Source: an uncultured Coriobacteriaceae bacterium (GTDB lineage: Bacteria; Actinomycetota; Coriobacteriia; Coriobacteriales; Coriobacteriaceae). Taken from it: DNA of 64,000 nucleotides. The notes under the pieces are model-generated. The model did no database searches, was not told the DNA's origin, and worked only from the letters and a program-made list of their open reading frames with translations. The first letter of the stretch is position 1; every line of letters begins with the position of its first letter. The translations under genes were made by a program, and so were the position numbers. Positions 40,607 to 63,849 of the stretch are shown in pieces. The DNA lies in contig CALUFC010000003.1 in NCBI GenBank assembly GCA_944319885.1, forward strand, positions 62,001 to 126,000, written 5' to 3'.

Positions 40607-41623
40607 TCAGCCCCTAAACTCGAAGGTGGAGAGGCCAAAGGTGAGCAGGTCGCCGTCGCGTAGCGGGCAGCGCGTGATGCGGCGGTTGTTGACCATGGTA
40701 CCGTTGGTGGAGCGCAGGTCTTCGATCGACCAGTCCTGGCCGGTGAAGGTGAGCTGTGCGTGGCGGCGCGAGACGTTGGGATCGTGCAGCACCACGTCGG
40801 ATGCGGCGCGCTCGCGGCCGATGATGCACTGCGAGCCCGTTACCTCGTGCACGTCGCCCGTCACCACGTCGACAAGCTGGGCGTGCGGCTGCGCCGGCGT
40901 GGCGTTGCGCGTGCCCGCCATGTTCGAGGCGATGCTTGCGGCGGCGCCCAGAGCGGCACCCGTGGCGGCCGCCCCGCCCACGCCGGCAATTTGCTCGCGC
41001 GTGATGGTCTTGGGCACCGGGATGGGCGCCGCGGCGGGATCGGGCATGTTGGGGGCGAAGGGATCGGCCACGGCATCATCTGCGGCGTCCGCAGCCACGG
41101 CGGGCACGCGGCTGCTCGCGAGCTGCGCGCTTGCGCGCGGCGCGGGCTCTGGCTGGTTGGGAACCGAGATGGGCATGGGGGCCGACTGGCGGCGCGACTG
41201 CGCGGGCATGCTCTGCGAGAGGCCCTGCTGGTAGGCGCGCTCCTCCTCGTACAGACGGCCCAGCGTGGGGGCGTCGACGTTTTCGGCGAACACCGAGAAC
41301 TTGCCGCCCTTGAGCGACGGGTCGATCATGAAGCGCACGAGCGGCTCGCCCACAAAGACATAGCGCTTCTTCTCGGCCTGGGCCTTCACGAACTCGCTGA
41401 TCTCGCGCGAGAGCTCCGGGTAGTAGGGGGCCATAAGCGGGTCGTCGTCGTTGGCGATGAGGATGGTGTAGAGGGCCGGCGCGGTGTTGACTCCATTGAT
41501 CACCAGCGTCTGATCCTCCATCTCCCGCGCCGCCTGCTTGGCGAGCTTCTTAAAGGAGAACGGGGCTCGGGTAGCACCGAAGATGCCCGCCACGTGGTCC
41601 TCAAAGATATTCAGGAAATTCAC
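40607..41623 (-). CDS. fhaA: FHA-domain protein FhaA (DUF3662 plus FHA)
   Basis: A 338-residue cytoplasmic protein. The N-terminus (about 1-115) matches the DUF3662 domain typical of FhaA (FEDHVAGIFGATRAPFSFKKLAKQAAREMEDQ). A Pro/Ala-rich linker spans about 120-240. The C-terminal FHA domain has CIIGRERAASDVVLHD, VSRRHAQLTF and DLRSTNGTMVNN. In mycobacteria FhaA binds the phosphorylated MviN pseudokinase and helps restrain peptidoglycan synthesis. Its start overlaps the stop codon of the kinase gene before it by 4 bases. Confidence 0.95.
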   Translation of the reverse strand: MNFLNIFEDHVAGIFGATRAPFSFKKLAKQAAREMEDQTLVINGVNTAPALYTILIANDDDPLMAPYYPELSREISEFVKAQAEKKRYVFVGEPLVRFMIDPSLKGGKFSVFAENVDAPTLGRLYEEERAYQQGLSQSMPAQSRRQSAPMPISVPNQPEPAPRASAQLASSRVPAVAADAADDAVADPFAPNMPDPAAAPIPVPKTITREQIAGVGGAAATGAALGAAASIASNMAGTRNATPAQPHAQLVDVVTGDVHEVTGSQCIIGRERAASDVVLHDPNVSRRHAQLTFTGQDWSIEDLRSTNGTMVNNRRITRCPLRDGDLLTFGLSTFEFRG

Positions 41624-43461
41624 GAACGATCAGCCTCCGCTAGTTCTTTTCTATATCCGAGCAATTTTACACATATACAGAGCAGTATAGAGGAAAGGGC
41701 TCCCACGCCGAGAGCTATGGCGGGCGTCGGGCTGCTCACGCTGGCAATTTCCATAGGGTTTGCAAGACAGAGCAGCAAAACAACCATAATTCCCGGAACG
41801 AGGCAGCACACGGGGAGAAGCTTGGTTCCACGGGCGTCGAGCACGTTGCGCCAGAGGCGTCTGAGCAACATGCTCGCTGCTATGGCGGTGAGGATGGCAC
41901 CGACGGCGCCCGCGATGAAACGCGGGCTCCCCACGGCGGAGAGGGCCGCGAGCGAGTCGAGCTCGCCGCCGGCTCCGACGGCCGTCTCGAGCAGGCGCGA
42001 GAAGATGAGGCCTGCCGCCATGGAGGCTGCGGCGCTTACCGGGGAGAGGAAGTAGCCCGCGACCGCGGCGATGGGGCCGGCGAGCAGGATGGTGTCGCCG
42101 GTGAGCACGCCGGCCGCCGCGCAGGCCGCCATCAGGGCGCTCGCCGCCGGATTGGTGCGGCCCCATGCATACCACCACCCCGCCATGCCGGCGAGGAAAA
42201 GCGACGCGATGGCCAGCACGCTCAGAAAATCGGTGGATGTGAGGATCATCATCATGAAGCCCGTGGCGATAAGCGCCGAGCCCAGCTGCGGCGCCACCCC
42301 GGCCGCCGCGCCAATCGCGAGCGCGGCGATAACGCCGCCGAGCACTCCCGAAAGTCCCATCGTCTCGAGCAGCGCATATGCCCCTACGGCGACGGATGCT
42401 CCGCCGAGCACCCCCACCGCGATGCGGCGCGCCTGCGCGCACCGGCTGCCCAGATAGCCCTCTGCGGGGTCGAGTTCCCACACGTGTCCGTGGCCGGTGG
42501 CGCCATCAGTGTCTTCGGCGAGATCGTCGGCGGTGAGCTCGGCGATGATGCGCGCAAGGCTCGCCCGTCCCGCGCGCGGGCTGCCCAGCCGCTCGAGAAA
42601 GCGGTCGCCAAACTCGTCGACGGAGGCGGGGCGATCGTCGGGGTGGGGCGCGAGGGCCGCCTCGAGCGCGAGCTCGGAGAGCTCGGGCATGTCGGGGAGC
42701 AGCAGCGATGGCTGGATGACGCCCTTATCGATGCGCTTGATCGAATCGGCCGGGGTGCCGGCGCGGAAGGGCGCGGTGCCGCAGAGCGATTCGTAGAGCA
42801 CGGCGCCCAGGGAGAAGATGTCGGTGCGCTCATCTACCGCGGCGCCGATGATCTGCTCGGGCGGCATGTATCCCACGGTGCCGCCGCGCGCGTCGCCGTA
42901 GCCCGCCGCCATGCTGAGCGTTGCCATGCCGAAGTCGGTGAGCTTGACATGCCCATTGTGGTCGATGAGCACGTTGGCGGGTTTGATATCGAGGTGGAGC
43001 ACGCCGTTCTCGTGCGCGAAGGAGAGCGCCTGAACGAGCGCATCGCCAATGCAGGCGGCCTCGTCGTAGGTGAGCGAGTGACCGTCCACCTGCGCCAGAA
43101 ACTCCTCGAGCGACATGCCGTCCACGTATTCCATAACGAGGTAGGCATACGCGTCGTCGTAGGTGAAGTCGATGACGGAGACGATGTTGGGATGCTGCAG
43201 CATGCTCGCGGTGCGCGCCTCTGCCAGTGCGGTCTCGCGCGTCTCGGCGGGCTGGGTGCTCGTGGGCGTGGCGAGTGGCATGCGCTTGATGGCGACGCGC
43301 CGCTGCAGCCGCGCATCGAGGCAGATCTCCACGCTGCCGAAGCCGCCGGTGGCACGCGTCTCGAGCGGACGGTACCGCTTGAGCAGGATGGCGCCGGTTG
43401 ACCCGTGCGCTGGTGTGCCCGGGCGCGACGAGCTCGGGATATGTTGCGAGAACAACGGCAT
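41620..43461 (-). CDS. Membrane Ser/Thr protein kinase, non-RD type
   Basis: A 613-residue kinase that heads the operon. The kinase domain (about 25-300) has ATGGFGSVEI, VAIKRMP, DFGMA and a GT-Y/F-MPPEQ activation end. The catalytic loop reads VLHLDIKPANVL, so the usual Arg of HRD is Leu. The C-terminal half (about 370-600) contains about 7-8 hydrophobic segments and no PASTA or other extracellular sensor. In mycobacterial operons the second kinase is PknA, with a single membrane helix, so this is a different architecture in an equivalent setting. AAGGA precedes the ATG. Confidence 0.92.
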   Translation of the reverse strand: MPLFSQHIPSSSRPGTPAHGSTGAILLKRYRPLETRATGGFGSVEICLDARLQRRVAIKRMPLATPTSTQPAETRETALAEARTASMLQHPNIVSVIDFTYDDAYAYLVMEYVDGMSLEEFLAQVDGHSLTYDEAACIGDALVQALSFAHENGVLHLDIKPANVLIDHNGHVKLTDFGMATLSMAAGYGDARGGTVGYMPPEQIIGAAVDERTDIFSLGAVLYESLCGTAPFRAGTPADSIKRIDKGVIQPSLLLPDMPELSELALEAALAPHPDDRPASVDEFGDRFLERLGSPRAGRASLARIIAELTADDLAEDTDGATGHGHVWELDPAEGYLGSRCAQARRIAVGVLGGASVAVGAYALLETMGLSGVLGGVIAALAIGAAAGVAPQLGSALIATGFMMMILTSTDFLSVLAIASLFLAGMAGWWYAWGRTNPAASALMAACAAAGVLTGDTILLAGPIAAVAGYFLSPVSAAASMAAGLIFSRLLETAVGAGGELDSLAALSAVGSPRFIAGAVGAILTAIAASMLLRRLWRNVLDARGTKLLPVCCLVPGIMVVLLLCLANPMEIASVSSPTPAIALGVGALSSILLCICVKLLGYRKELAEADRS

Positions 43462-51172: not shown

Positions 51173-51985
51173 ATGAAAAAGACAATGGTTTTGATGGCAG
51201 CAGCGGCGATGCTCTCGATGGCGGCTTGCTCGTCGGGCGGCGCGGGTGCCACGGGGACGACGCTCGGCACGGGGGACGCGGGCGACTCCGATGCCGCCAT
51301 TGAGACCCCGGGTGAAAACATTGAGGCAACAACGCTGGATCCGCTGGTGACCGAGGATGATGTGAATGGGTCGTACAGCTCCGATTCCACCAGTTCGGTG
51401 GACTCGTACGGCACTGCATCCTCGGCGGGGGCACAGGATTCTGCGGGCGTCACGCGCATGGATGTTGAGCCCATTCCCGCGTTTGAGGCGTTTAGCACCA
51501 AGAGCATCTGGTTCAGTGTGAACGAGAACTTTGCAAAGTATTCGCTCGTGTGGGCGGTGTTCGCATTTGATGGCAACGGTAACGTGACGGTTTATAGCCA
51601 TGTTGACCAGTTTGATTTCTCGATGATTAATGCCAGCATGAGCGACGATGAGGTACTGGAGGTTGTGAAATCGGTTGAGATGGAGGAGCGCAGCTATCTA
51701 GGCATTGATGGTGAGCCGCAGCCGCAGCCCATTAACCTGCGGGTATTCACTGACGATTCGGGCAACATCACCGAAGAAGAGCAGATCGGTTACATCAACG
51801 ACGACAAGGGGCTTACCGATGGGGCAACGATTTGGACCGATCTGGTGACGGATTATGAGATCCAGCCGATTTACGACATGCAGTTCGCGGGCTACACCAC
51901 ATTTAAGCGCCGCATCACCGATGCCGATAGCAACGTGGGCTACAACCTGGACGCGGCGAACACCGCGGGTATCACGGTGTACTAA
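51173..51985 (+). CDS. Lipoprotein of unknown function
   Basis: A 270-residue secreted lipoprotein. The signal is MKKTMVLMAAAAMLSMAAC with the lipobox LSMAAC, so the mature protein starts at Cys19 on the outer membrane face. A Gly/Ser/Thr/Asp-rich spacer runs to about residue 95. The folded part (about 95-270) has an acidic composition with many beta-prone segments (IWFSVNENFAKYSLVWAVFAFDGNGNVTVY). I do not recognise the domain. AGGAAAGGA precedes the ATG. It is upstream of a membrane protein, kinase and FHA gene, which suggests but does not prove a shared signalling role. Confidence 0.85.
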   Translation: MKKTMVLMAAAAMLSMAACSSGGAGATGTTLGTGDAGDSDAAIETPGENIEATTLDPLVTEDDVNGSYSSDSTSSVDSYGTASSAGAQDSAGVTRMDVEPIPAFEAFSTKSIWFSVNENFAKYSLVWAVFAFDGNGNVTVYSHVDQFDFSMINASMSDDEVLEVVKSVEMEERSYLGIDGEPQPQPINLRVFTDDSGNITEEEQIGYINDDKGLTDGATIWTDLVTDYEIQPIYDMQFAGYTTFKRRITDADSNVGYNLDAANTAGITVY

Positions 51986-52036
51986 GACGGCTGGATTCTG
52001 ACGGCGCTTCGATGCGTGCTGCAAGCGAGCGACGCG

Positions 52037-52067
52037 CGGGCCGGAAGGAGAGCATCCTTCCGGCCCG
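52037..52067 (+). terminator. Terminator after lipoprotein gene
   Basis: A perfect 12-bp stem (52037-52048 with 52056-52067) with a 7-base loop, 51 bases after the stop codon. The T run is poor (GTTGCTC). Confidence 0.6.
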
Positions 52068-52113
52068 CCGTTGCTCAGAGCTTTCCACGGCGCTTCAAAT
52101 GTTAGTGTGCAAG

Positions 52114-52263
52114 TATCATATGAGGTTAGGCAATTGTACATCGCCTTGCTGGCAGCAGCGCGCTGTCCCTAATTTGCACGGTGCCGTTTATCTGCGGAAA
52201 TGTAAACGGTGAATTTGGATGTCGAGCCAAGCCGTCGTTAAAATTGCCTAACCCCATATGATA
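52114..52263. mobile_element. MITE-like element with 22-bp inverted repeats
   Basis: The ends, 52114-52135 and 52242-52263, are inverted repeats with 21 of 22 positions matching (left end TATCATATGAGGTTAGGCAA). The outermost TA on each side could be a TA target duplication, as made by IS630/Tc1-type transposases. The interior has a CCGTTTA/TAAACGG hairpin (52184-52209) and no coding potential. It lies in the gene-free gap 51986-52362. Further on, 52329-52351 holds an imperfect palindrome (CCATTT...AAATGG) near the start of the next gene. Confidence 0.65.
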
Positions 52264-52362
52264 GTAGCTGGGTAACACATTATAGGCCCCTGGCGCGTTG
52301 GCAAAACGCGCCTCAGGACGCCGCCCATTTTGTAGTACAACAAATGGTGTCCCCCGCCTGAT

Positions 52363-53352
52363 ATGATAAAAACGCTGCGTCGGTTCGAGAAGAATGGATT
52401 GACTGCCGTGAGCGGGGCGAAGGCAAAGGCATGGTTGCGGCGTTTCAGGTACAAACTGGCGCTTCCTTCCGTCTTGATGGGTCTCGTAGTTTTCTCGTTC
52501 ACGCTCCTTGGATTCGGAGCAGTTGTCTACACAACGGCGTTGCCCTCGCTGGTTGCGGTTGCTGAGCAGGATGACGGAGCCTACTCCCAGCTAACGCATA
52601 GTATCGAAAACGCCGTGAATGGCGGGCTTGCAACGGGAGAGACGGCTGCGAATGAAGAGTCGGCTTCCGGGTCAAACGCCAGCGCATCGCGGCCTACGGT
52701 AACATCATCTGGCCTTACGCTTGGAAATCTTGCAGATGTATCGGGGGTCACGCAGCCCGAAGCCAACGCACAAGACCAAGGCGAAGACCAAGACGCACAA
52801 GATGATGCGGCCGAAGATAATGACGAGGAAGTCGAAGGCAGTGATCAGGATGCTGCCAATCCTGCTCCGCCTGCCGAGGATGAGCCAACCCAGCCAGATA
52901 CGCCAACCGGTCCCGATCCAGAGGCGGAGCAGGCTGCATATGACCATCTGCTAAGCGAGTTCCAGGCCATCGAAGGCTACATGGGCCAAGTCAACGCGTG
53001 CGTCCAGGCCTTCAACAACGATAACCAGGCGAATCTCGACACGCGCCTTGCCCACCAACGCGAAAACGCCGCGCTCTACGCGATGTTGCATTCGCACTAC
53101 GCCGGGCTTTTGGGCTATGCGCTGCCCGAGGGTAGTCAATACGGCTCCGCTCGCGGCAGTCTCATTGCTATGTATCGTTGCCTATCCAGCTATGTGGGGG
53201 TAATCGATAGCGCCTGGACGCTCAATGTGCGGTTCGAAGATCCCGAGAACCATGTCGATGAATACATGGTTCCCATTCGCGGGTCAGAGGTTGACGGGGT
53301 GAATAAGTATCTTGCCGAGTTTTACTCCCGCTACGAGGGGTTTGTGCTGTGA
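52363..53352 (+). CDS. Single-pass membrane protein with acidic linker
   Basis: A 329-residue protein. A basic N-terminus (residues 1-32) is followed by one strong membrane helix (LPSVLMGLVVFSFTLLGFGAVVYTTALPSLVAV). Residues about 75-200 are a disordered, very acidic Gln/Asp/Glu/Pro-rich linker. The last 130 residues are helical and mostly charged (QAIEGYMGQVNACVQAFNNDNQANLD..., then VDEYMVPIRGSEVDGVNKYLAEFYSRYEGF). No known domain is recognised. The ribosome site before the ATG is weak. The kinase gene starts inside its last codons, so the two are translationally coupled; it may be the kinase's partner or substrate. Confidence 0.8.
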   Translation: MIKTLRRFEKNGLTAVSGAKAKAWLRRFRYKLALPSVLMGLVVFSFTLLGFGAVVYTTALPSLVAVAEQDDGAYSQLTHSIENAVNGGLATGETAANEESASGSNASASRPTVTSSGLTLGNLADVSGVTQPEANAQDQGEDQDAQDDAAEDNDEEVEGSDQDAANPAPPAEDEPTQPDTPTGPDPEAEQAAYDHLLSEFQAIEGYMGQVNACVQAFNNDNQANLDTRLAHQRENAALYAMLHSHYAGLLGYALPEGSQYGSARGSLIAMYRCLSSYVGVIDSAWTLNVRFEDPENHVDEYMVPIRGSEVDGVNKYLAEFYSRYEGFVL

Positions 53353-55367
53353 GCTGGTTGATGGCGCAGGGTGGAGACGAGATCGAGACGCCCGACAGCG
53401 AAAAGGCGCCCGCGGCACGTCGCGTACCGCTGCACATGGTTCGTCTAGAACAGTTTGAAGAGGCGGTCGCGCTTTCGCAGGATGAGCGCACTGTATACCG
53501 CCGGCGGTTCGTCACCTTGTTTGCGGATGATTCACACGTACGTCGCGGCGGATTTGGCCGTGTAACGCGTGTGACAAACGCGTTGGGCGAGACGCTTGCG
53601 CTCAAAACACTCATCATCCCTCAGCGTGACGAACTTGAGCAGGAAGACCGCTATGCTGCGCGCGTGGATCGGCTCAAGAAATCATTCCGACGCGAATACG
53701 AGGATCATCGTGCCCTGTCGGGGCTTCGTGGCTTTCCGCGGCTCTACGGGTATGGGTTGGCAAACGGCGTACCCGCAATTGTCATGGAGTGGGTCGAGGG
53801 CATGACGCTCGAGGCGGTGCGCCGCCAGCTTGCGGTTGATGATGCCGGCAGGATGTCGCCGCTCGATGCGGCGCGTATCGGCAGCGCGCTGTTTGATTTG
53901 CTTGCCAACATGGACCTTATTGGCGGAGGCTTCGTGCACCGCGATATATCGCCCGCAAACATTATGGTGCGAACGGTTCGCTTGCCAATCGAGCAGCAGG
54001 CCGAAGAGGGTTCATTCGATCTCTGCCTCATTGACTTTGGTTCCGCGGCACTATTGGATCCATCAGAACATACTTCATTTACCGCGCAGGGCGGCTCGCT
54101 GCGTATGGCTACGGCGGCGTATGCTCCGCCCGAGATGCTTACGCAGGACTTGCCCCATATCGAGCGCTTGCGCAAATCGCCCGCCATCGATGTTTACGAG
54201 GCGGCGAGCGTGGTGTACGAGCTCGTCTGCGGATACCCGCCGTTTTGCATCGCGTCGCAAGAATCGCGAGGAACTGCTGGGCAGCCGCGAGGGGAGCGGG
54301 AAGGCGCCGGCGCAAAGAACCCTGCCAAAGAGAGGACACCAACGGATGCCTCATCGGCGAGTTCACCTTCGCCGTTCCGCATCAAGATGGACCAAAGGCC
54401 TCGACCCATACAATGCGTGCACGGTGCATGCCGGCTTGAAAACCTTGCCGATGTACTGGTCAAGGAGCCCGAGATTGCACTCGCAGCGGGCAAGGCGGCA
54501 CTCGATTTGCAGCTCAAGCCCACATCGCCCCAGGTAAAAGGTGCGCTCGAGATGGTCGATGAACAGCTGGCAGAACTGCTCATGCCGTGCTTTGCCACAG
54601 CTCAGCATAAGCGTCCCACCGCCCAGGCCATCTATGATGGACTCGATGCGTTTTGTGCTTACTACACCCAAAACATCGGCCGAGCGATGCGCGGGGAGGC
54701 GCTCATTCCGTGCACCGGATCTTCCTCCTGGCTCGATGCAACATCGCCGTTCGCGTTGCGCCGGCTCGTGCGTACGGTGGGCAAAGCGATTGCGGCGGCG
54801 GTGTTTGTCGTGGTGGTAGTCGCCACGGCTCTGCTCATCGACGGTGCCCCTGCAACGTTCGCTGCGGGCCCGATTGCGTGGCAGGGAAGGATAAGCGGTT
54901 TTGTCATCGCGGCCATGCTCGTCGTCCCGGCGCTGTGCGCATATCCTGCGCGCGGCAAACGAACGGGTACGAGCGTTGGTTTTGCGCGCGGCACGTTGAT
55001 GTTGCTGTGCGCTTCCGGGCTGGTCGCGGTGGCGATGTCCTGTTTGCACCTGGAGCAACCCGAACGAGCACGCGGTCTGCTTGCTGCGTTGTTTGCTGCC
55101 GAGAGTGCGGCGTGGTGCCCCATCGTGCTCGATTTCGCCATGACGGTCGTGCCGTCGCTCATTGCCGAGGCACGTCGCCGTCTGGCGTCGGGCATTGCCG
55201 GTGCAATCGAGGCTCCAGAAGAGGAACCGCTTCTGCCAGATGGCGACGGGGTAGATGCTGCCGAGACGGGCATCAGCGAGATCAACGACGCCGAAGCGGG
55301 CGACGTGGTGGCGCAGGAGCCTGCGGAACTCCATCCAGATACGGAAGGGGATGATCCCCGTGAGTGA
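53349..55367 (+). CDS. Membrane Ser/Thr protein kinase
   Basis: A 672-residue kinase. The kinase domain (about 55-440) has a glycine-rich loop RRGGFGRVTRV, ETLALKTL (catalytic Lys), VHRDISPANIMV and LIDFGSA. A roughly 110-residue insert lies late in the domain (SQESRGTAGQPRGEREG to ENLADVLVKEPEIAL), which is unusual. The C-terminal part has about four membrane helices (about 475-610) and an acidic tail. It starts at a GTG that overlaps the stop codon of the previous gene by 4 bases, and is followed at once by an FHA gene that could read its phosphorylation. Confidence 0.9.
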   Translation: MSWLMAQGGDEIETPDSEKAPAARRVPLHMVRLEQFEEAVALSQDERTVYRRRFVTLFADDSHVRRGGFGRVTRVTNALGETLALKTLIIPQRDELEQEDRYAARVDRLKKSFRREYEDHRALSGLRGFPRLYGYGLANGVPAIVMEWVEGMTLEAVRRQLAVDDAGRMSPLDAARIGSALFDLLANMDLIGGGFVHRDISPANIMVRTVRLPIEQQAEEGSFDLCLIDFGSAALLDPSEHTSFTAQGGSLRMATAAYAPPEMLTQDLPHIERLRKSPAIDVYEAASVVYELVCGYPPFCIASQESRGTAGQPRGEREGAGAKNPAKERTPTDASSASSPSPFRIKMDQRPRPIQCVHGACRLENLADVLVKEPEIALAAGKAALDLQLKPTSPQVKGALEMVDEQLAELLMPCFATAQHKRPTAQAIYDGLDAFCAYYTQNIGRAMRGEALIPCTGSSSWLDATSPFALRRLVRTVGKAIAAAVFVVVVVATALLIDGAPATFAAGPIAWQGRISGFVIAAMLVVPALCAYPARGKRTGTSVGFARGTLMLLCASGLVAVAMSCLHLEQPERARGLLAALFAAESAAWCPIVLDFAMTVVPSLIAEARRRLASGIAGAIEAPEEEPLLPDGDGVDAAETGISEINDAEAGDVVAQEPAELHPDTEGDDPRE

Positions 55368-56295
55368 TCTCACGCCTTGTGGGGCGATGTTCGCCATGTT
55401 CAAGCGCAAGGGAGGCATGTCAAACCGCGAGGTGGCGGGACTCGTGCTCTCTGCCCGCCCACTATCCGATGGCAAGAGCCCTGTAAGCCGGATAAGCGAC
55501 CGCACATGGGTGTCGCGCTTCATCGTCCATGCGCCAACAGGTTCGCTGCAGGAGCGGTACTTCCGTGATTACGGTAGCGCAGCGCAGCGGCTGTTCGATC
55601 GCATTCGGTCGAGCCATCGCAGGTTGAGCAATCAGCAGGTCATCGACTTCGTGCTCGATGAGCAAGAGCATCTCATGGAGCAGGCGCTCGAGGCGCAGCA
55701 TCAAAGCGCCGCGCTGTACCGCAACGCCATGGAGCGCATCGCAACGCTTCCGGGTAACTCCCCCGGCGAGCGCGCGGAAATGCTCATGGTGCTGCTCGTG
55801 GCAACGGGGTGTTCCGGGCAGGTGCGTGCTGCCGTCGCCTATACCATGGACTACGCGCGCAAGATGTTTGACGCGCGGCCCAGTACGCCGCCTTCGGTCG
55901 AGTGGGATGCCCAGGCAGAGGCGTCCGCGTCAGAAGCGCCGCACGCCATGGGGTTGCTGCGCCTCAAAGACGCGCTGGTAACGGGCGGTCCCTATTGGAT
56001 TGAGCCTGCGGGCGAGGGTGCTCAGATCGGCGCGCTTGCAACGGGCGAGCACGATGTCACCGATGTCGAGGACGATGTCTCTGGTCTGCATCTGCGCATC
56101 TGGCACGATGCCGAGTGCGGGTGGCTCGTCGAAGACCTTGACTCCACGAATGGCACGCAGCTTGTCGATGGGGCGGACGGTACGGTGCAGAGGCTCGCGC
56201 CGAACGCGCCTGAATCGCTGCATCCGGGCGATGAGATCCGCTTGGGCGCGGCAACAGCCTTTGCCCTCATCGAGGGCGAGGCGCAACCGGTATAG
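55360..56295 (+). CDS. FHA-domain protein
   Basis: A 311-residue cytoplasmic protein. The N-terminal 190 residues are helical and of unknown family (MFAMFKRKGGMSNREVAGLVLS, RISDRTWVSRFIVHAPTG). The C-terminus is a forkhead-associated domain (about 215-305) with the conserved core VSGLHLRIWHD and VEDLDSTNGTQLVDG; the first GR of classical FHA domains is replaced. The GTG start has GGAAGGGG 9 bases upstream and overlaps the kinase stop codon by 8 bases; an ATG at 55351 is too close to the ribosome site. It probably binds phosphothreonine made by the kinase encoded just before. Confidence 0.88.
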   Translation: MSDLTPCGAMFAMFKRKGGMSNREVAGLVLSARPLSDGKSPVSRISDRTWVSRFIVHAPTGSLQERYFRDYGSAAQRLFDRIRSSHRRLSNQQVIDFVLDEQEHLMEQALEAQHQSAALYRNAMERIATLPGNSPGERAEMLMVLLVATGCSGQVRAAVAYTMDYARKMFDARPSTPPSVEWDAQAEASASEAPHAMGLLRLKDALVTGGPYWIEPAGEGAQIGALATGEHDVTDVEDDVSGLHLRIWHDAECGWLVEDLDSTNGTQLVDGADGTVQRLAPNAPESLHPGDEIRLGAATAFALIEGEAQPV

Positions 56296-56377: not shown

Positions 56378-58549
56378 CTACACGCCGAGCGCCTTCTTGG
56401 CGGCCGCCACGGCATCGCCACTCTCGTAGAATTCAGGACTTACCGAGCCAATGAGCTCGGGTGAGATGCCCTGCAAGTCGACAATCGAGCTCATGGGCAG
56501 CAAGATGCGCTTGGCGCCGGCGTTTTTGGCTACACGCATGACATCCTCGAGGTTCGCCACAGGTTCCAACGTGCCCGAGATGCGCAGGATGCCCGGGATA
56601 GCGAGTCCCGCCATGACGGGGCGGTTCGCAGCGGCCGAGCACAACCCGATAAACTCGGCGAGCGAGAGCTCGGCCGAGAGGCCTTTACTCTGGATGTCGT
56701 TGTAATACAGCAGATAGTCCTTATTGGAGATGTGCATGCCGCTCGCAAGTCGCGATGCGTTCTGCTTGAACTGCTGGAAGGCGGCGTCCATCGAATCGTT
56801 TACGGCTTTGTTGTAGCCAACGCCCTCGGTGCGGAACTTCATATCGCCCGCGATGGCCTTGTTTTCAAGCCGGTACACGGCGGTCTCATCGTTCATCGAG
56901 GTGCCAATGGCAAAGACGTGCCCCGGCAGCAGGGAGGCGTCGGGGATGAGCGTGTCGTCGGCTTGCTCGGGTACGCGCGCGATCACCGACTCGGTGGGGT
57001 TCTCCGCGTCAACATAGCCCAGGTTGACGTCGATAAACTCGATGCCCGCCATAATCTTGAGCTGCTCTTTCACGCGGCGGCGCCCCTCGATGGCATATTC
57101 GAGCAGCATGCGCACGTCTTCTTTATCCATGTTGCCGTCGGGGAAGACGAGCTTCGCCAGGCCCGAGAAGGTTTTGCGCACGCCGATCTCATCGCGGCGG
57201 TTGAAGTCGCCGTTCAGGCGGAAGCACTGGTCGAGATAGTGCGTGAAGTCACGTCGGCGCATCTCGTGGCAGAACTCCGAGAGACAATCGGTGATGAGGC
57301 TGTAGCGCCCGGTGATGAGGTCCGAACGCATCTTGGGAACTTCCCAACCGGGCAGATAGCAGTGGATGCGGTCGAAGAACGCGCTGTCGTTGTTAAACTC
57401 CGGCGGGAACGGCTCGAAGAGGTGCGTGGTTTTGAGGATGTTCTGCACGCTGTCGTTGATGTTGCCCTCGAAGACCATCGACGCCTCGGCATTGAACAGC
57501 TCGCGTCCGCGGCCGAAGGTGCCGTTGGCCATATAGCCCTTCATGATCTGGATGGCGTTGGCGTCCTTGTAGTGCATGCCCGCAACCTCGTCGAAGGCGA
57601 TGCAGTCCCAGTGGCCCACCAAGCCGATGCCGCCCGTGCGCGCCACGTTATTGGCAAACAGCATCGCGGTGGTTGCCTGTCCGCCGGAGAGCAGGTAGGA
57701 ATAGGGCGATACCTCGGTATAGATATGCGATTTGCCCGTGCCGCGCGGCCCCAGTTCGCAGAGGTTGTAGTTGAGCTCGATGAGCGGAACCATGCGGATG
57801 AGGAAGTGCATGCGCTCGCGCGGGGAGAGCGCGCTGGCTTCGTAACCGGCGGAGCGCAGGACGAGCGCGATCCATTCATCGGTGGAGAACTCACAGCGCC
57901 GGGAGATGATCTGGTCGACATCGAGGTTGGGCATCTGGATAGGCGTGAGGTCGATGATGTGGAATGGCGAGTTCTCCGGACCCTTGCCGTTTTTCGAGGG
58001 CCTGGGCTTGATGGTGGCGGCTGGATCCTCGCCAAAGACATCGGAAAGCGGGTCTTCGGCAACGTCTTCGGGACGCAGGTATTGGATGCGCGCGATGCAC
58101 CAAATGCCGCCGGTGAGCATCTTGGTGTACTGGCGCACATACTCGTCGGGCATGATGAACGGCTCGATGGCGAGGTTGGCGAGGTTCGCCACGTAGATAT
58201 CGCGGCGCTCGTCGAGATAGGCGCTCACCTTGTCGATGATGGTGTACTGCCCCAGCTCGCGAATACGCGACTTGATGACCTCGCTCTCCTCGGTGCGAAC
58301 GTAGTTTTCGGCAAGGATCTTGCGGATGCGCGCGAGCCCCTCGTCAAGCGCGGTGGGGTCATCGGTGGCGCAATAGGTGCCCAGCAGGTACTCCAGGACG
58401 AACGTGGGGATGCCCGCGCCGCGCTTCATGAGGGCGGTGAGGTCTTTGCGAACGATAAGTCCGGGGAAGTTGCGCACGATTTTGCGGTCGAGTTCGTCCT
58501 TCTCGTAGGCGGGGGCGGCGATTGCGGTGTTGTCGCTCATGGTTACCAT
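56378..58549 (-). CDS. brxL: BREX system protein BrxL
   Basis: A 723-residue AAA+ protein of type 1 BREX phage defence. The central ATPase domain has Walker A ELGPRGTGKSHIYT (about residue 270) and Walker B-like DCIAFDEVAGMHYKD. The C-terminal Lon-like domain (about 540-723) includes LSLAEFIGLCSAAANRPVMAGLAIPGILRISG; the usual PSAG Ser motif is not conserved, so protease action is doubtful. In published work BrxL forms DNA-encircling hexameric rings. The start overlaps the pglZ stop codon; an ATG 3 codons later (58540) is as plausible. It is last in the operon. Confidence 0.95.
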   Translation of the reverse strand: MVTMSDNTAIAAPAYEKDELDRKIVRNFPGLIVRKDLTALMKRGAGIPTFVLEYLLGTYCATDDPTALDEGLARIRKILAENYVRTEESEVIKSRIRELGQYTIIDKVSAYLDERRDIYVANLANLAIEPFIMPDEYVRQYTKMLTGGIWCIARIQYLRPEDVAEDPLSDVFGEDPAATIKPRPSKNGKGPENSPFHIIDLTPIQMPNLDVDQIISRRCEFSTDEWIALVLRSAGYEASALSPRERMHFLIRMVPLIELNYNLCELGPRGTGKSHIYTEVSPYSYLLSGGQATTAMLFANNVARTGGIGLVGHWDCIAFDEVAGMHYKDANAIQIMKGYMANGTFGRGRELFNAEASMVFEGNINDSVQNILKTTHLFEPFPPEFNNDSAFFDRIHCYLPGWEVPKMRSDLITGRYSLITDCLSEFCHEMRRRDFTHYLDQCFRLNGDFNRRDEIGVRKTFSGLAKLVFPDGNMDKEDVRMLLEYAIEGRRRVKEQLKIMAGIEFIDVNLGYVDAENPTESVIARVPEQADDTLIPDASLLPGHVFAIGTSMNDETAVYRLENKAIAGDMKFRTEGVGYNKAVNDSMDAAFQQFKQNASRLASGMHISNKDYLLYYNDIQSKGLSAELSLAEFIGLCSAAANRPVMAGLAIPGILRISGTLEPVANLEDVMRVAKNAGAKRILLPMSSIVDLQGISPELIGSVSPEFYESGDAVAAAKKALGV

Positions 58550-61152
58550 CCAAAGTCAATCGAAGGGGCAAAGGCAACGCGGATGTGGAGGTCGCAGAGT
58601 GCTTGGACCTCACGCGTGGCGGTGTTGCGTGTATAGAGGCGATACAGCTCCTGTTCCGAGGTTGCGGCGCCCGGCTTTAAGGACAGCGAGACACGGTGCC
58701 GGCGTGCGGTGGCATCAGAGGCGGTGCGGTCGGCAACCACGCGGGCGATATCGGTGACGGGCTCGTGAGCAACATCGCCTACGAAGACCTCGTACTCCGC
58801 CGGGAGCACCTTGCCGCCCACGGGCTCTTCTTGCAAGAACTCCAGGGTGAACAGCGAGTTGGTAATCGTATCGATACGCGAGACAAGCGAGATGCTCGCC
58901 GGCGTGCTCTCAACGTAGCCCTTGCTGCCGGCGCGTTTGTTGGTAAAGCGCAGCACGGGGACGCAGAACTCTTGCAGCGAGATGCCACCATGCACGTAGT
59001 TCTCTCCGCCGCCCGCCATGCGCAGGCGCACGCATTCGCGAGGCGCAAGGCCCACAAGCGATTCCTGCTCGGGTGCCGTGGGGAGTGCCACGCTCATGAG
59101 CGGCCCGGCTTGCACGCCATCCAGGGCAACGGCATAGCGCCTGCCTGCCTCAACAATGGTTCCCGCGATATCGGAGACCGAGATGTGCTCTGATTCCATC
59201 AAGGGGCGATCGGTGTAGAGGAAGCCGTGGTCGGCGGTAATGGTGATGTTGGATGCGCCGAATTCGCGCACGATGAGCTGCGTGCACGCGGTGAGCTCGT
59301 CGACCGCTTCCGTGCACGCGGTGAACACCTTGCGTTCGGTGGGCTCCTTGTCGCCGAGCGCGTCGATGGTGTTGTGGTAAATGTAGACAACCTCGGCATC
59401 GGCCACCAGCTCGCGCCGCTCGGCGCGGCCCATCTCGTTGAAGAAGTCGTCGTAGCGCACCGCAACGGCGGCTCCCGCGCGTCGTTGCAGCGCCTGCTGG
59501 CGCGCATCGGTGGTTTGAGCTTCTGCTCCGTCTACGAGCACCGAGAGCCGCTGCTTGCCTGGTGTGCCCGCAGCTGCGTAGGTGAACGTGCCAAAGGGGA
59601 GCAGCGCCGCCATGCCCGCTTTGGTGATAGAGGGGAAGACCGCCTGCGCGGAGCGCAGGTCGCAGACGCCCTTGGTTTCACGCTCGAGACGCTCGGCAAG
59701 CTCGGCGGCAACTTCGAAGCGCAACGCATCTGAGACGACCACCCAGGCACGCTTTTTAGTGTGGAGCACCGGTTCCACTTCGGCCAGATAGAAATCGAGC
59801 TGGCGCGGTATGTTGTTCACGTAGCCCACGTTCGCAAGATCCGTCTCGCAGGCTTCTGCCCATCGACGCGAGAGCTCTTTTAAGAACCAACCTTTATAGA
59901 GGTCTTCAAGAGCGTTGCAGCAGGTGCGGAAATCCTCATCGAGCGCATAGGCGCCCAAGCGAAGCGACTGACCAAACGCGGTATACAGCTCGCGATACCA
60001 GCGGTCCATGTGCCACCATGACTGCGTGTAGTGCTTCCAAAGGGCCTCGGCGTTTCCCGCGGGAAGCGTTGGGCCATATTCATGGTAGAAGCTCTGCATG
60101 AGTGCCGCGTGGCGCACGCCCTCGTAGTAGCAGGCGAAGTGCGCGCTCCACAGACAGCTTCGCCGCTCGTTAGCAAGTTCGGCGGCGGTATCTGCGCCGT
60201 TGGGTTCCGCGACGGCGGCGAACAGCTTGCGGAGGATGATGGCATCGATGCAGGGGAAGATGTCGGCGCGGGCAAGCTCTGCGGGATCGACGTGCGAAAG
60301 CAGCCCCTCGATGTTTGATGAATCCTCAACCGTGCAGCAGAGTTCGAGCAGCTCGTCGGCAAGGTTGCCGCGTGCCCACTCGTGCACAAGCGTCCGGCAG
60401 AAAGGTGCATGTGCAAGCGAGTAGCACGAGGCAAGCGGCACCAGGGCGCTCTCGGGAACCGAGGGAGCGAGCGCGGTGAGCAGCACGTGCTGCGCGAGCG
60501 CCGTAAGGTCGCAAATATCACCCGTGAATCCGGTCCAACTGGCAACAGCCCGCGTGAAGGCTTCTGCCACCTTTGCCTTTTCGAGAGCGCTTTGAGCTTC
60601 GGGTGCCCCCTCGCTTGCTGCCATGACGAGGTAGCCAATGAGCACGTGCTCGGCATCAGCCTGTTTTGCACCCAGCGCGCAGGCCATGATAGCAAGTTCG
60701 AGCTGCTGCGGCGTCTCATAGCGCTCCTGGAGGCGCGCAAGCTTCTTAAGGTTGGTCTTCTTGGTAAGAAATGCTTTGTGGGCCGTAAAGGCATTGCGCA
60801 TCTGTGATGTGTCGATACCGTTGAGCTCGCGCATCTGAACAGAGACATAGTCTGCCGAGAACTGCTGCGCACGAGCCTCGATATCGGCAAGCCAATCGCC
60901 GGAGAGGTTGCGCTGGCGTTGCCGGTACAGCAGGATGCGCCTACCAGCAAGGTTGCCGTTAAGTTCGCGCTTGAGTGCGAACCGCGAGCCTGGCTGCTCG
61001 CGTATCACTTCAACGCCGGGAAGCTCGAAGCTATCGAGCGTGTCCGAGAACTCACCGTCTGGGTCATGCCAGATAACGATGGTTTCTCCTGCCTGCATGT
61101 TTGAGTTGTCGAAGCATCGCTTCAATTCGTTTGAAATGTCCGTCGTCCTCAT
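58543..61152 (-). CDS. pglZ: BREX phosphatase PglZ
   Basis: An 869-residue PglZ of the alkaline-phosphatase superfamily, a core BREX component. The N-terminal half is the BREX-specific region beginning ELKRCFDNSNMQAGETIVIWHDPDGEF. The phosphatase-like domain has WVVVSDALRFEVAAELAERL (metal Asp) and ITITADHGFLYTDRPL (metal Asp/His). The C-terminus includes GGISLQEFCVPVLRF, typical of PglZ. The full length is open, with no frameshift. AAGG lies 7 bases upstream of the ATG. It starts 9 bases after the pglX remnant ends and runs into brxL, the usual type 1 order. Confidence 0.95.
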   Translation of the reverse strand: MRTTDISNELKRCFDNSNMQAGETIVIWHDPDGEFSDTLDSFELPGVEVIREQPGSRFALKRELNGNLAGRRILLYRQRQRNLSGDWLADIEARAQQFSADYVSVQMRELNGIDTSQMRNAFTAHKAFLTKKTNLKKLARLQERYETPQQLELAIMACALGAKQADAEHVLIGYLVMAASEGAPEAQSALEKAKVAEAFTRAVASWTGFTGDICDLTALAQHVLLTALAPSVPESALVPLASCYSLAHAPFCRTLVHEWARGNLADELLELCCTVEDSSNIEGLLSHVDPAELARADIFPCIDAIILRKLFAAVAEPNGADTAAELANERRSCLWSAHFACYYEGVRHAALMQSFYHEYGPTLPAGNAEALWKHYTQSWWHMDRWYRELYTAFGQSLRLGAYALDEDFRTCCNALEDLYKGWFLKELSRRWAEACETDLANVGYVNNIPRQLDFYLAEVEPVLHTKKRAWVVVSDALRFEVAAELAERLERETKGVCDLRSAQAVFPSITKAGMAALLPFGTFTYAAAGTPGKQRLSVLVDGAEAQTTDARQQALQRRAGAAVAVRYDDFFNEMGRAERRELVADAEVVYIYHNTIDALGDKEPTERKVFTACTEAVDELTACTQLIVREFGASNITITADHGFLYTDRPLMESEHISVSDIAGTIVEAGRRYAVALDGVQAGPLMSVALPTAPEQESLVGLAPRECVRLRMAGGGENYVHGGISLQEFCVPVLRFTNKRAGSKGYVESTPASISLVSRIDTITNSLFTLEFLQEEPVGGKVLPAEYEVFVGDVAHEPVTDIARVVADRTASDATARRHRVSLSLKPGAATSEQELYRLYTRNTATREVQALCDLHIRVAFAPSIDFGW

Positions 61153-61161
61153 TTGTATGCC

Positions 61162-62136
61162 TTACTTAATCATTGCCAGCACATCACCGAATTTGGGGTA
61201 GTTCATCTTCACGCCGTCGTCGAGGTCGATCGCAATCATCTGATCGGCGAGCCGATGGATCTTCTCCTCGAACAGGCGAATCTCGTCCATCTGGCTGCTG
61301 ATGCGTTTGTATTCCTTGGTGAGTGCAGCCTTTTGGCGGCCAGCGGCGGTTTCAAGCGACGCTTCGATGCCAGCCAACCGGCTGCGGTAGCGCTCCTGCT
61401 GTGGATGCACGTACTCTGTACGGATGCGCGCCATAAGGTCGGGCCGGTAACGGTGCATATAGAAGAGCGCTTTGAAGCTGTTCTTCTTGCCAGCGTCGAG
61501 CAACCAGTAAATGGGGCGTTTCTTGTATGTCTTGCAATGGTCTTTGAAAAACTCCTTGAGGAAATACTGGCGGATGACCTCGCGGGCAGTGCACTTGGCG
61601 GCGGAGTCGAGCGCGTCGGCCACGTATTGGAGGTTCTCTTCGAGTGTTTCTGACCCATATGCTGCGATAACGAACTGTTCGAACCGCGCAACGATGTCGT
61701 CGCCAAAGTACTCGTCATCAGTAATGGGGAGGACATTATCCGCATCGGGCATAAAGGTCACGTGCTCAGGGTCGGGCATCTTGGCGAGGTACTCGGCTAC
61801 GGTGTCGCCCTGGTTGGCAAGCACCAGCCCATCCACATCGAGCGAATAGCGGCCGAACATGCACCCCACGGCGTAGCTTATAAACGAGACAATCTCGTCG
61901 CGGCGGGTGCGCACATAATTGTTGCCCTTGAAGCTTTCCGGGATCTCCTCTTTGGTATCGAAGATTCGCGCGACCGAGACGTACTTGTCCTCGACCTCAA
62001 TGGGAACCTCACCCACCATGTTGTAGATTTCCGCAAAGATGCGGTTGAGCTCCTCCTCGTTGGCTTTGAGCTGGTCAAAGCGCTCGTTGACCTCCGTCTT
62101 GTGCGCTTCGTATTTGTCGCGTATGAGAGTTGCCAT
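61162..62136 (-). CDS. pglX: BREX PglX, C-terminal remnant without methyltransferase domain
   Basis: A 324-residue protein that aligns by eye with the last quarter of PglX, the adenine methyltransferase of type 1 BREX (normally about 1,150-1,250 residues). Diagnostic segments: ANEEELNRIFAEIY, SFISYAVGCMFGRYSLDVDGL, DDEYFGDDIVARFEQF, CKTYKKRPIYWLLDAGKKN and LADQMIAIDLDDGVKMNY. The S-adenosylmethionine and NPPY motifs and the recognition region are absent, and upstream DNA encodes nothing PglX-like. The frame is open from an ATG with AAAGG upstream. It looks like a 5' deletion that kept or acquired a start, and it cannot methylate DNA by itself. Confidence 0.9.
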   Translation of the reverse strand: MATLIRDKYEAHKTEVNERFDQLKANEEELNRIFAEIYNMVGEVPIEVEDKYVSVARIFDTKEEIPESFKGNNYVRTRRDEIVSFISYAVGCMFGRYSLDVDGLVLANQGDTVAEYLAKMPDPEHVTFMPDADNVLPITDDEYFGDDIVARFEQFVIAAYGSETLEENLQYVADALDSAAKCTAREVIRQYFLKEFFKDHCKTYKKRPIYWLLDAGKKNSFKALFYMHRYRPDLMARIRTEYVHPQQERYRSRLAGIEASLETAAGRQKAALTKEYKRISSQMDEIRLFEEKIHRLADQMIAIDLDDGVKMNYPKFGDVLAMIK

Positions 62137-62323: not shown

Positions 62324-63007
62324 ATGAAAGATCTTTCCATATTCGTTGATGAATCCGGCGACCCCGGCACCGAGTCCAAGTACTACCTCATCGCCCTTGT
62401 ATTTCATGATCAAAGTGATGGGTTCGAGCGGTATGAAGCCGATTATCTCCAGGCGCTGCGGACAAAGGGGTTGAGGGACATTCCCCTCCATCTTTCTCCT
62501 CTGCTCAACGGCAACGATAGATACAGGGGTATGGACGTGGAGGAACGTAAGAGGTATCTCGCGGCGTTCCGCGTCTTCCTGCAGTATCTCCCGTTCACGT
62601 ATGCGGTGTTTGCATACAAGAAATCCGAGCTGGATGTCGACTTGCTCGCCCCTCGGGGCGCCATCCAGCGCATTAGACGAGATCTCGCCATTTACCTGTT
62701 GGATCATCTCGAGTATCTGCAGCAATTCGACGAGGTGAAGATTTACTACGACAACGGTCAATCTTTGGTCACGGAAACGTTGCACGATGCTGTGGAGTTC
62801 GCGTTGTCTAAGGAGGCGATTATTTACCGGGATGCCTCTCCTCAGCGTTATCGTCTTTCTCAGGTCGCTGACTATATCTGCACACTCGAGCTTGAAGCGA
62901 TCAAGTATGCAAACTCCGAGACGGGGGGCACCGATCAGCTTTTCTTTGGTATGCGCAAACGCTTTGAAAAGGACTTTTTGAAGAAGCTTCAGAAGCATCG
63001 CTTGTAA
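62324..63007 (+). CDS. DUF3800 domain protein
   Basis: A 227-residue protein with the DUF3800 signature: the N-terminal SIFVDESGDPG strand-turn, and the late SPQRYRLSQVADYICTLELEAIKY with the conserved Asp and aromatic residues. The fold is thought to be RNase H-like, which makes a nuclease role possible but unproven. Members occur in mobile and defence islands, often with structured leader RNAs as here. GTGGGG lies 3 bases before the ATG. It is divergent from the BREX remnant and upstream of a toxin-antitoxin pair. Confidence 0.85.
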   Translation: MKDLSIFVDESGDPGTESKYYLIALVFHDQSDGFERYEADYLQALRTKGLRDIPLHLSPLLNGNDRYRGMDVEERKRYLAAFRVFLQYLPFTYAVFAYKKSELDVDLLAPRGAIQRIRRDLAIYLLDHLEYLQQFDEVKIYYDNGQSLVTETLHDAVEFALSKEAIIYRDASPQRYRLSQVADYICTLELEAIKYANSETGGTDQLFFGMRKRFEKDFLKKLQKHRL

Positions 63008-63224: not shown

Positions 63225-63482
63225 ATGGTATCGATACACGTTGACGATGCATTGTACGCAAAAATCGCCGAGGCATACGAGCGGGCCAAGGGCCCGTTCG
63301 TGCTTACTCGAGAAGGATATCCGAGCCCCATCATCATGCGCCCCTCCGATCTTGAAGAAGAAGCGCCGCTGAGTGATGCTGGGAAAGCATCTCTTTTAGC
63401 CGGTTACAAAGAGTATCTGAATGGCGATGTCGTTGAAGCCCATGAAGTGATCTCCGAGATCCGGAACAAATATGGGCTATAA
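63225..63482 (+). CDS. Type II antitoxin, Phd/RelB-like
   Basis: An 85-residue protein with a short N-terminal DNA-binding region (MVSIHVDDALYAKIAEAYERAKGPFVLTREGYPSPIIMRPSDLEE), in the style of Phd/YefM or RelB antitoxins. A helical C-terminus (GYKEYLNGDVVEAHEVISEIRNKYGL) would wrap the toxin. AAGGGAGG precedes the ATG. Its last codons overlap the toxin gene by 11 bases, so the pair is translationally coupled and probably autorepressed. Confidence 0.85.
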   Translation: MVSIHVDDALYAKIAEAYERAKGPFVLTREGYPSPIIMRPSDLEEEAPLSDAGKASLLAGYKEYLNGDVVEAHEVISEIRNKYGL

Positions 63483-63849
63483 GGTTTACGCTACGCATAC
63501 CGCGCGAAATGGATTCGAAAACTCGGTTGAGTACATTTTCCAAATCTTGCGCACTCTGCGTACGGCCGCGCGTTTGATTCACGCGTTCGGTGCCATTGTC
63601 GATGATTTCGAGAAGAATTCGGCGTTTTATCCAAAGAGCATTAGCGCAGCAAAGCCCATCGGTAGGGACGTCTATTATCGGAATATAGACTCGTATCGAG
63701 TGTATTTCGTTGTCGACCCCGAGTGTAGCGCTGCGACGGTTTTCTCGTTCCTTCACAAGCGACAAGACCTGAGCATGAGCCTCCGCGAAGATTGTCTTAG
63801 TGCTATGGCGTGGCCTTCCCTCTTGCAGAAAAGGAGACTTAGTTTTTAG
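63472..63849 (+). CDS. Type II toxin, RelE/ParE family
   Basis: A 125-residue toxin-like protein of the RelE/ParE superfamily, with the fold pattern YKVYATHTARNGFENSVEYIFQILRTLRTAARLIHAF, then GRDVYYRNIDSYRVYFVVDPECSAATVFSFLHKRQDL. RelE members cut mRNA at the ribosome and ParE members block gyrase; the family split cannot be made here. It is longer than most (about 95-105) because of a helical end. It lies directly after its antitoxin. Confidence 0.85.
   Translation: MGYKVYATHTARNGFENSVEYIFQILRTLRTAARLIHAFGAIVDDFEKNSAFYPKSISAAKPIGRDVYYRNIDSYRVYFVVDPECSAATVFSFLHKRQDLSMSLREDCLSAMAWPSLLQKRRLSF

What the first reader, a model, noticed from the sequence alone, without database searches (positions are those of the whole stretch)
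51173..56295. Second kinase/FHA set: lipoprotein, membrane protein with acidic linker, kinase with insert, FHA protein
Three genes overlap in tandem and the first lies just upstream. No member apart from the kinase and FHA domains is recognisable. The set looks like a complete signalling unit with an outside lipoprotein, a membrane partner, a kinase and an intracellular phosphothreonine reader. I know of no description of it.
Basis: partly seen in the sequence, partly recalled or inferred. Interest (0 to 1): 0.55.

Follow-up and report, generated by a model that had tools for sequence, protein, structure and literature searches.

The report
Three-gene membrane kinase-FHA receptor module
Three overlapping genes in a gut bacterium encode a probable split membrane receptor (a sensor protein, a kinase and its dedicated partner) that recurs together in many Coriobacteriales but appears undescribed; the neighbouring lipoprotein gene is not part of it.

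Summary
A single-pass membrane protein (MEM, 52363-53352), a Hanks-type kinase with four C-terminal TM segments (KIN, 53349-55367) and an FHA protein (about 55351-56295) recur together. Of 21 named loci found with the FHA protein, 20 have KIN beside it and 19 have a MEM-type ORF directly upstream of KIN. MEM and KIN overlap by four bases in 18 of 20 loci checked. The lipoprotein is in none of the 21 and is followed by a strong hairpin. In the family the usual order is dnaX-ybaB-recR-MEM-KIN-FHA-nifJ; here a BREX-1 system lies between FHA and nifJ, but most sets lack BREX. MEM's ectodomain and the FHA protein's N-terminal domain match no Pfam family. Sister two-gene FHA-kinase loci carry fused WG-repeat or DUF6273 ectodomains, so MEM looks like a split-off sensor. 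The FHA domain lacks the phosphate-binding Arg in 21 of 21, and the kinases lack the catalytic-loop Lys. Best reading: a split receptor kinase with a dedicated, possibly non-phospho-reading partner. Signal and output unknown.

The parts
52363..53352 (+). MEM: 329-aa single-pass membrane protein; basic N-terminus, TM at residues 37-55 (52471-52527), acidic low-complexity linker, helical ectodomain of about 150 aa (52900-53349)
   Evidence: ectodomain AlphaFold2 pLDDT 97.1, three long helices; no Pfam family above cut-off
53349..55367 (+). KIN: 672-aa Hanks-type kinase (domain residues 63-428, 53535-54632), four TM segments (residues 480-594, 54786-55130), acidic C-terminal tail; GTG start overlaps MEM stop
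   Evidence: HRDISPAN catalytic loop
55351..56295 (+). FHA protein: N-terminal helical domain (55369-55890) + linker + FHA domain (56053-56247); overlaps the KIN stop
   Evidence: pocket residues
52036..52068 (+). strong hairpin between the lipoprotein and MEM (probable boundary of transcription units)
51173..51985 (+). lipoprotein: neighbour, NOT part of the module
56378..62136 (-). brxL, pglZ and 3' part of pglX of a BREX-1 system between FHA and nifJ: neighbour, NOT part of the module

Best explanation
MEM-KIN-FHA is a split transmembrane Ser/Thr receptor-kinase module specific to Coriobacteriales. Shown: three co-oriented, overlapping genes kept together across the order; MEM has one TM segment and a helical-bundle domain on a low-complexity linker; KIN has a kinase domain and four TM segments; the FHA protein has a highly conserved N-terminal module. 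Inferred: MEM senses something outside the membrane through its helical domain and controls KIN through TM contacts, doing the job that fused WG-repeat or DUF6273 ectodomains do in the sister two-gene FHA-kinase systems. The FHA protein is the dedicated cytoplasmic partner; its N-terminal module of about 60 residues (the most conserved part of that protein) is probably the output or kinase-docking surface, while its FHA domain binds its partner by an altered, perhaps phosphate-independent, mode.
For: Linkage: KIN next to FHA in 20 of 21 named loci and a MEM-type ORF directly upstream of KIN in 19 of 21; four-base MEM/KIN overlap in 18 of 20 loci checked. Sensor exchange: 12 two-gene FHA-KIN loci examined; of 10 kinases scanned, 4 carry WG repeats and 6 DUF6273 C-terminal to a TM segment. 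MEM ectodomain model pLDDT 97. Conservation: residues 8-70 of the FHA protein 69% mean pairwise identity, against 44% for 71-175 and 48% for the FHA domain. Order-specific: 73 of 296 genomes of the class and 8 of 296 of the phylum matched, all in the same order.
Against: No interaction, phosphorylation or ligand is shown. MEM need not be a sensor; its helical-bundle matches (best Z 11.4, BAG domains) are within what common bundles give. HRDxSPxN lacks the usual catalytic-loop Lys, so kinase activity is not assured. In L107 a MEM-like gene lies about 2 kb upstream of KIN, and L109 has the FHA gene without KIN or MEM. Some members have broken frames (L096 MEM, L099 and L108 KIN).
Confidence: 0.6

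Rival explanations
1. The FHA protein is a kinase-controlled transcription regulator (EmbR-like logic): the conserved N-terminal module binds DNA and the module is a direct membrane-to-promoter pathway.
For: The most conserved stretch has two short helices joined by a conserved basic loop; EmbR's FHA domain is among the structural matches.
Against: No helix-turn-helix family matched the N-terminal domain in Pfam, PHROGs or PDB sequences beyond stray weak hits, one of them MerR_1 at E 0.019 in 1 of 21 members; the fold of this part alone was not searched.
Confidence: 0.18
2. The set is an anti-phage or BREX accessory module.
For: BREX-1 lies directly beyond FHA in 4 genomes, whose BrxL form one group; a DruE-like gene in a fifth and a GIY-YIG helicase in a sixth; BrxL and the set co-occur among 65 family genomes (BrxL in 15 of 32 with the set, 4 of 33 without; Fisher p 0.003, not corrected for kinship).
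Against: Of the 21 loci only three (L090, L093, L097) show brxL beside FHA. PglZ and KIN identities disagree (G015-G005 84% against 52%; G000-G020 74% against 64%), so the histories differ. The FHA-nifJ gap is short or holds unrelated genes elsewhere. No relative was found in viral contigs or phage records.
Confidence: 0.1
3. It is an adjunct of the housekeeping PknB/FhaA envelope-growth pathway encoded about 9-20 kb away.
For: In the family the set and kin1-fhaA bracket dnaX-ybaB-recR.
Against: Patchy presence (FHA match of 400 bits or more in 32 of 65 family genomes) and other contexts outside the family.
Confidence: 0.1
4. Four-gene unit with the lipoprotein as outside component, as first read.
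For: Adjacency and same strand in this window.
Against: Lipoprotein homologue absent from 21 of 21 set loci; present by the amylase in G003, where no FHA match of this family was found; strong hairpin between.
Confidence: 0.02

Closest known systems
PknB/Stk1-type PASTA receptor kinases with FhaA/FhaB (present in the same window, 33554-35509 and 40607-43461)
   Same: transmembrane Ser/Thr kinase with an FHA partner encoded close by
   Different: no PASTA repeats; putative sensor on a separate protein; four TM segments; HRDxSPxN; FHA without the Gly-Arg; different N-terminal domain
PknQ-MupFHA pair of Mycobacterium ulcerans (PMC4238996, passages read)
   Same: kinase gene with a neighbouring FHA gene whose products interact
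   Different: MupFHA has and needs the conserved Arg (R41A disrupts binding); here that Arg is absent
EmbR (FHA-bearing DNA-binding regulator; architecture recalled)
   Same: FHA domain at the C-terminus of a helical protein, under kinase control (the latter inferred here)
   Different: no DNA-binding family recognised in the N-terminal domain
Two-gene FHA-kinase loci of Coriobacteriales with WG-repeat or DUF6273 ectodomains (found here)
   Same: related FHA-protein N-terminal domain and kinase, HRDxS loop
   Different: ectodomain fused to the kinase, no MEM seen; the Arg after the FHA Ser is kept

Membership tests
PASTA kinase (PknB/Stk1) | NCBIfam NF033483 score at or above 450 bits | tested here: not met
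   42.9 bits
PASTA kinase (PknB/Stk1) | extracellular PASTA repeats | tested here: not met
   no PASTA match in KIN or MEM
Hanks-type protein kinase | Pkinase domain above Pfam cut-off with HRD and DFG | tested here: met
   67.3 bits against 31.7; HRD and DFG
Hanks-type Ser/Thr kinase | catalytic-loop Lys (HRDxKxxN; rule recalled) | tested here: not met
   Ser at that place in 19 of 20 kinases (the 20th has a broken frame); PknB of the same window has HRDIKPQN
Canonical pThr-binding FHA domain | FHA fold | tested here: met
   Pfam FHA in 21 of 21; Foldseek best E 4.9e-6; VIA Z 14.4, rmsd 2.2, 104 aligned
Canonical pThr-binding FHA domain | conserved Gly-Arg, Ser, His, Asn (list in PMC4238996) | tested here: not met
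   Arg 0 of 21 (Ala 17, Ser 2, Cys 1, Ile 1); Ser, His and Asn-Gly-Thr 21 of 21; the Arg is also absent in 12 of 12 two-gene relatives
FhaB/FipA | NCBIfam NF049868 score at or above 125 bits | tested here: not met
   30.7 bits
MADS kinase MAD6 | NCBIfam NF047741 score at or above 460 bits | tested here: not met
   38.9 bits; PADLOC mad6 83 bits over the kinase part only
BREX kinase PglW | NCBIfam NF033442 score at or above 990 bits | tested here: not met
   15.9 bits
BREX-1 component | constant linkage with BREX | tested here: not met
   brxL beside the set in 4 genomes only; other sets without it
EmbR-like regulator | DNA-binding domain | tested here: inconclusive
   no family match; fold of the part alone not searched

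The most novel reading that the evidence does not exclude
A lineage-specific class of modular receptor kinases in Coriobacteriales in which the outside sensor is exchangeable (separate helical-bundle MEM, fused WG repeats, fused DUF6273) and the output is an FHA protein that has given up canonical phosphothreonine reading: kinase state is read through an altered FHA pocket and passed on by a new N-terminal domain, perhaps directly to DNA.
Probability: 0.3. Interest if true: 0.65.

Novelty: new variant of a known kind. Interest (0 to 1): 0.42.

Why it matters
It would be a signalling system of common gut bacteria (Collinsella, Slackia, Adlercreutzia relatives) for which no description was found in the searches made, with two protein domains that have no Pfam model and an FHA domain lacking a residue that partner binding needs in a studied FHA protein. 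Natural exchange of ectodomains on one kinase/FHA chassis would make sensor function testable by comparing intact natural systems.

Tried and rejected
Rejected: lipoprotein membership. Rejected: BREX component; the four adjacent BREX systems form one group (BrxL 85-92% among themselves, 78% or less to the others), but kinase and PglZ identities do not run in parallel, and other sets lie beside other genes or nothing. Rejected: phage or plasmid origin as a rule; no relatives among viral contigs (9 pattern stretches, none confirmed) or phage records, and one weak hit in a 900-kb 'plasmid' record of Collinsella aerofaciens, 27% identical, at the place of a second, more distant FHA gene of G046.

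Led nowhere: Foldseek for the MEM ectodomain gave no match at E 0.001 or better; VIA's best rows were BAG-domain and other bundles, Z about 11. In the FHA model the listed rows covered the FHA domain only, so the fold of the N-terminal domain remains untested. PDB-sequence matches of the N-terminal domain were mainly designed helical repeats. Papers: Collinsella + FHA domain gave one unrelated listing; the BREX/FHA/kinase listing and the BREX survey PMC12839542 (passages; 'FHA', 'forkhead', 'Coriobacteri', 'Collinsella' 0 occurrences) gave nothing on this set; two searches gave none; one search listed one unrelated paper; one search gave only general reviews. Not done: co-occurrence test corrected for kinship; MEM and KIN were inspected in 17 family loci, not in all 32 family genomes that have a strong FHA match.
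Full report
What is there. Three genes run in tandem: MEM 52363-53352, KIN 53349-55367 and FHA about 55351-56295. MEM and KIN share four bases. The lipoprotein 51173-51985 lies 377 nt upstream; a perfect 14-bp-stem hairpin at 52036-52068 (stretch folds at -38.6 kcal/mol, z -5.4) lies between it and MEM. Beyond FHA, on the other strand, lies a BREX-1 system: brxL, pglZ, a pglX in two pieces, and, outside the window, brxC, brxB and brxA. Then comes nifJ.

Which genes belong together. A scan of one genome each of 84,980 species with the FHA-protein alignment gave 21 loci, in Enorma, Collinsella, Senegalimassilia, Slackia, Adlercreutzia, Candidatus Aphodovivens and unnamed Coriobacteriia. KIN is next to FHA in 20 of 21 (not L109). 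A MEM-type ORF is directly upstream of KIN in 19 of 21; of these, the one in L096 is frame-broken and about 235 nt from KIN. In L107 a MEM-like ORF lies about 2 kb further upstream, and L109 has neither gene. The four-base MEM/KIN overlap is kept in 18 of 20 loci tested (17 of the 21, the window and two Collinsella-type loci; not in L108 and L110). No lipoprotein homologue is in any of the 21. Among 40 relatives the lipoprotein is in 5. In G003, of the same genus, it lies by the same amylase, and no FHA match of this family was found in that genome.

Locus and spread. Of 17 family loci inspected (the window, L018-L022, L072-L081, L089), 13 have recR on the upstream side in the fetched stretch, in the order ybaB-recR-MEM-KIN-FHA with dnaX beyond where the stretch reaches, and 12 have nifJ downstream. 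In the window and G020 other genes stand between recR and MEM (amylase; in the window also the lipoprotein). So the set is a resident of the recR-nifJ interval, and BREX has entered between FHA and nifJ. In other genomes that gap is short, or holds a GIY-YIG helicase (G019), SPFH/TPR-like genes (G065), sugar genes (G064) or radical-SAM-like and ABC-transporter-like genes with a partial FHA copy (G057) (apart from the helicase these names are read from sequence and were not tested). Within 65 family genomes a strong FHA match (400 bits or more) occurs in 32. The N-terminal domain was found in 73 of 296 genomes of the class and 8 of 296 of the phylum, every match inside the order.

BREX. BrxL is in 19 of 65 family genomes and beside the set in four: G000, G005, G015, G020. 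The BrxL proteins of those four are one group (85-92% identical; 78% or less to the others). But the set and BREX do not share one history: G015 and G005 have 84% identical PglZ and 52% identical KIN, whereas G000 and G020 have 74% and 64%. Co-occurrence is 15 of 32 with the set against 4 of 33 without (Fisher p 0.003, kinship not corrected), and in 11 of those 15 BrxL is not beside the set. A functional tie is not excluded but is not needed.

Protein anatomy. MEM: basic N-terminus, one TM segment, low-complexity linker, and a C-terminal domain modelled as three long helices with pLDDT 97.1; no Pfam family (scattered hits in single members only). The catalytic loop reads HRDxSPxN in 19 of 20 kinases (the 20th is frame-broken), against HRDIKPQN in this window's PknB. 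FHA protein: ten helices, then an FHA domain (mean pLDDT 86.3). Residues 8-70 are its most conserved part: 69% mean pairwise identity, against 44% for 71-175 and 48% for the FHA domain. The FHA domain keeps Ser, His and Asn-Gly-Thr in 21 of 21 but has no Arg after the conserved Gly in any of 21. The window's FhaA has that Arg. In MupFHA its mutation R41A disrupts partner binding (PMC4238996, passages), and in kanadaptin it belongs to the Arg-Ser-Arg triplet that contacts the phosphate (PMC4157861, passages). Twelve of 12 two-gene relatives also lack the first Arg but keep the second.

Sister systems. Twelve FHA-KIN loci without a MEM match were examined. Of 10 kinases scanned with Pfam, 4 carry WG repeats and 6 DUF6273 C-terminal to a TM segment. 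L085 was not scanned but ends alike; L087 has a 420-aa kinase ORF without a TM segment. The same kinase/FHA pair thus appears with three kinds of putative outside part, which is the main support for MEM being a sensor.

Mechanism and limits. Shown by sequence: linkage, overlaps, domain make-up, pocket and loop residues. Inferred: orientation in the membrane, sensing, kinase control by MEM, and the role of the FHA protein. Activity of the kinase and any phosphate-dependence of the FHA domain are open, since both depart from the canonical residues.

Literature. Searches found no description of this set; the held library lacks most subscription papers, so this is weak evidence of absence.

Noticed in passing
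window 61162-62136 and L036:6055-8640: pglX of the BREX-1 system is in two pieces (C-terminal 324 aa, N-terminal 861 aa), with a DUF3800 gene (62324-63004) and a toxin-antitoxin-like gene pair (63225-63846, no Pfam match; label by eye) between.
   Followed up: partly
window 52100-52277: Inverted repeat with 39-nt arms (79% complementary) upstream of MEM; a 22-nt part recurs at G000:C4:38951. Possibly a small transposon relic.
   Followed up: partly
L079:9990-20000: Between FHA and nifJ: ABC-transporter-like and radical-SAM-like genes, then a 157-aa copy of the FHA domain 81-84% identical to Collinsella-type FHA tails; partial FHA copies of the same extent or similar also in other genomes. Suggests insertion with duplication at the FHA 3' end.
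   Followed up: partly
L024-L030, L083-L087: Two-gene FHA-kinase systems with WG-repeat or DUF6273 ectodomains fused to the kinase.
   Followed up: yes
L019:10739-15640: Druantia DruE-like helicase beside the set in G012.
   Followed up: no
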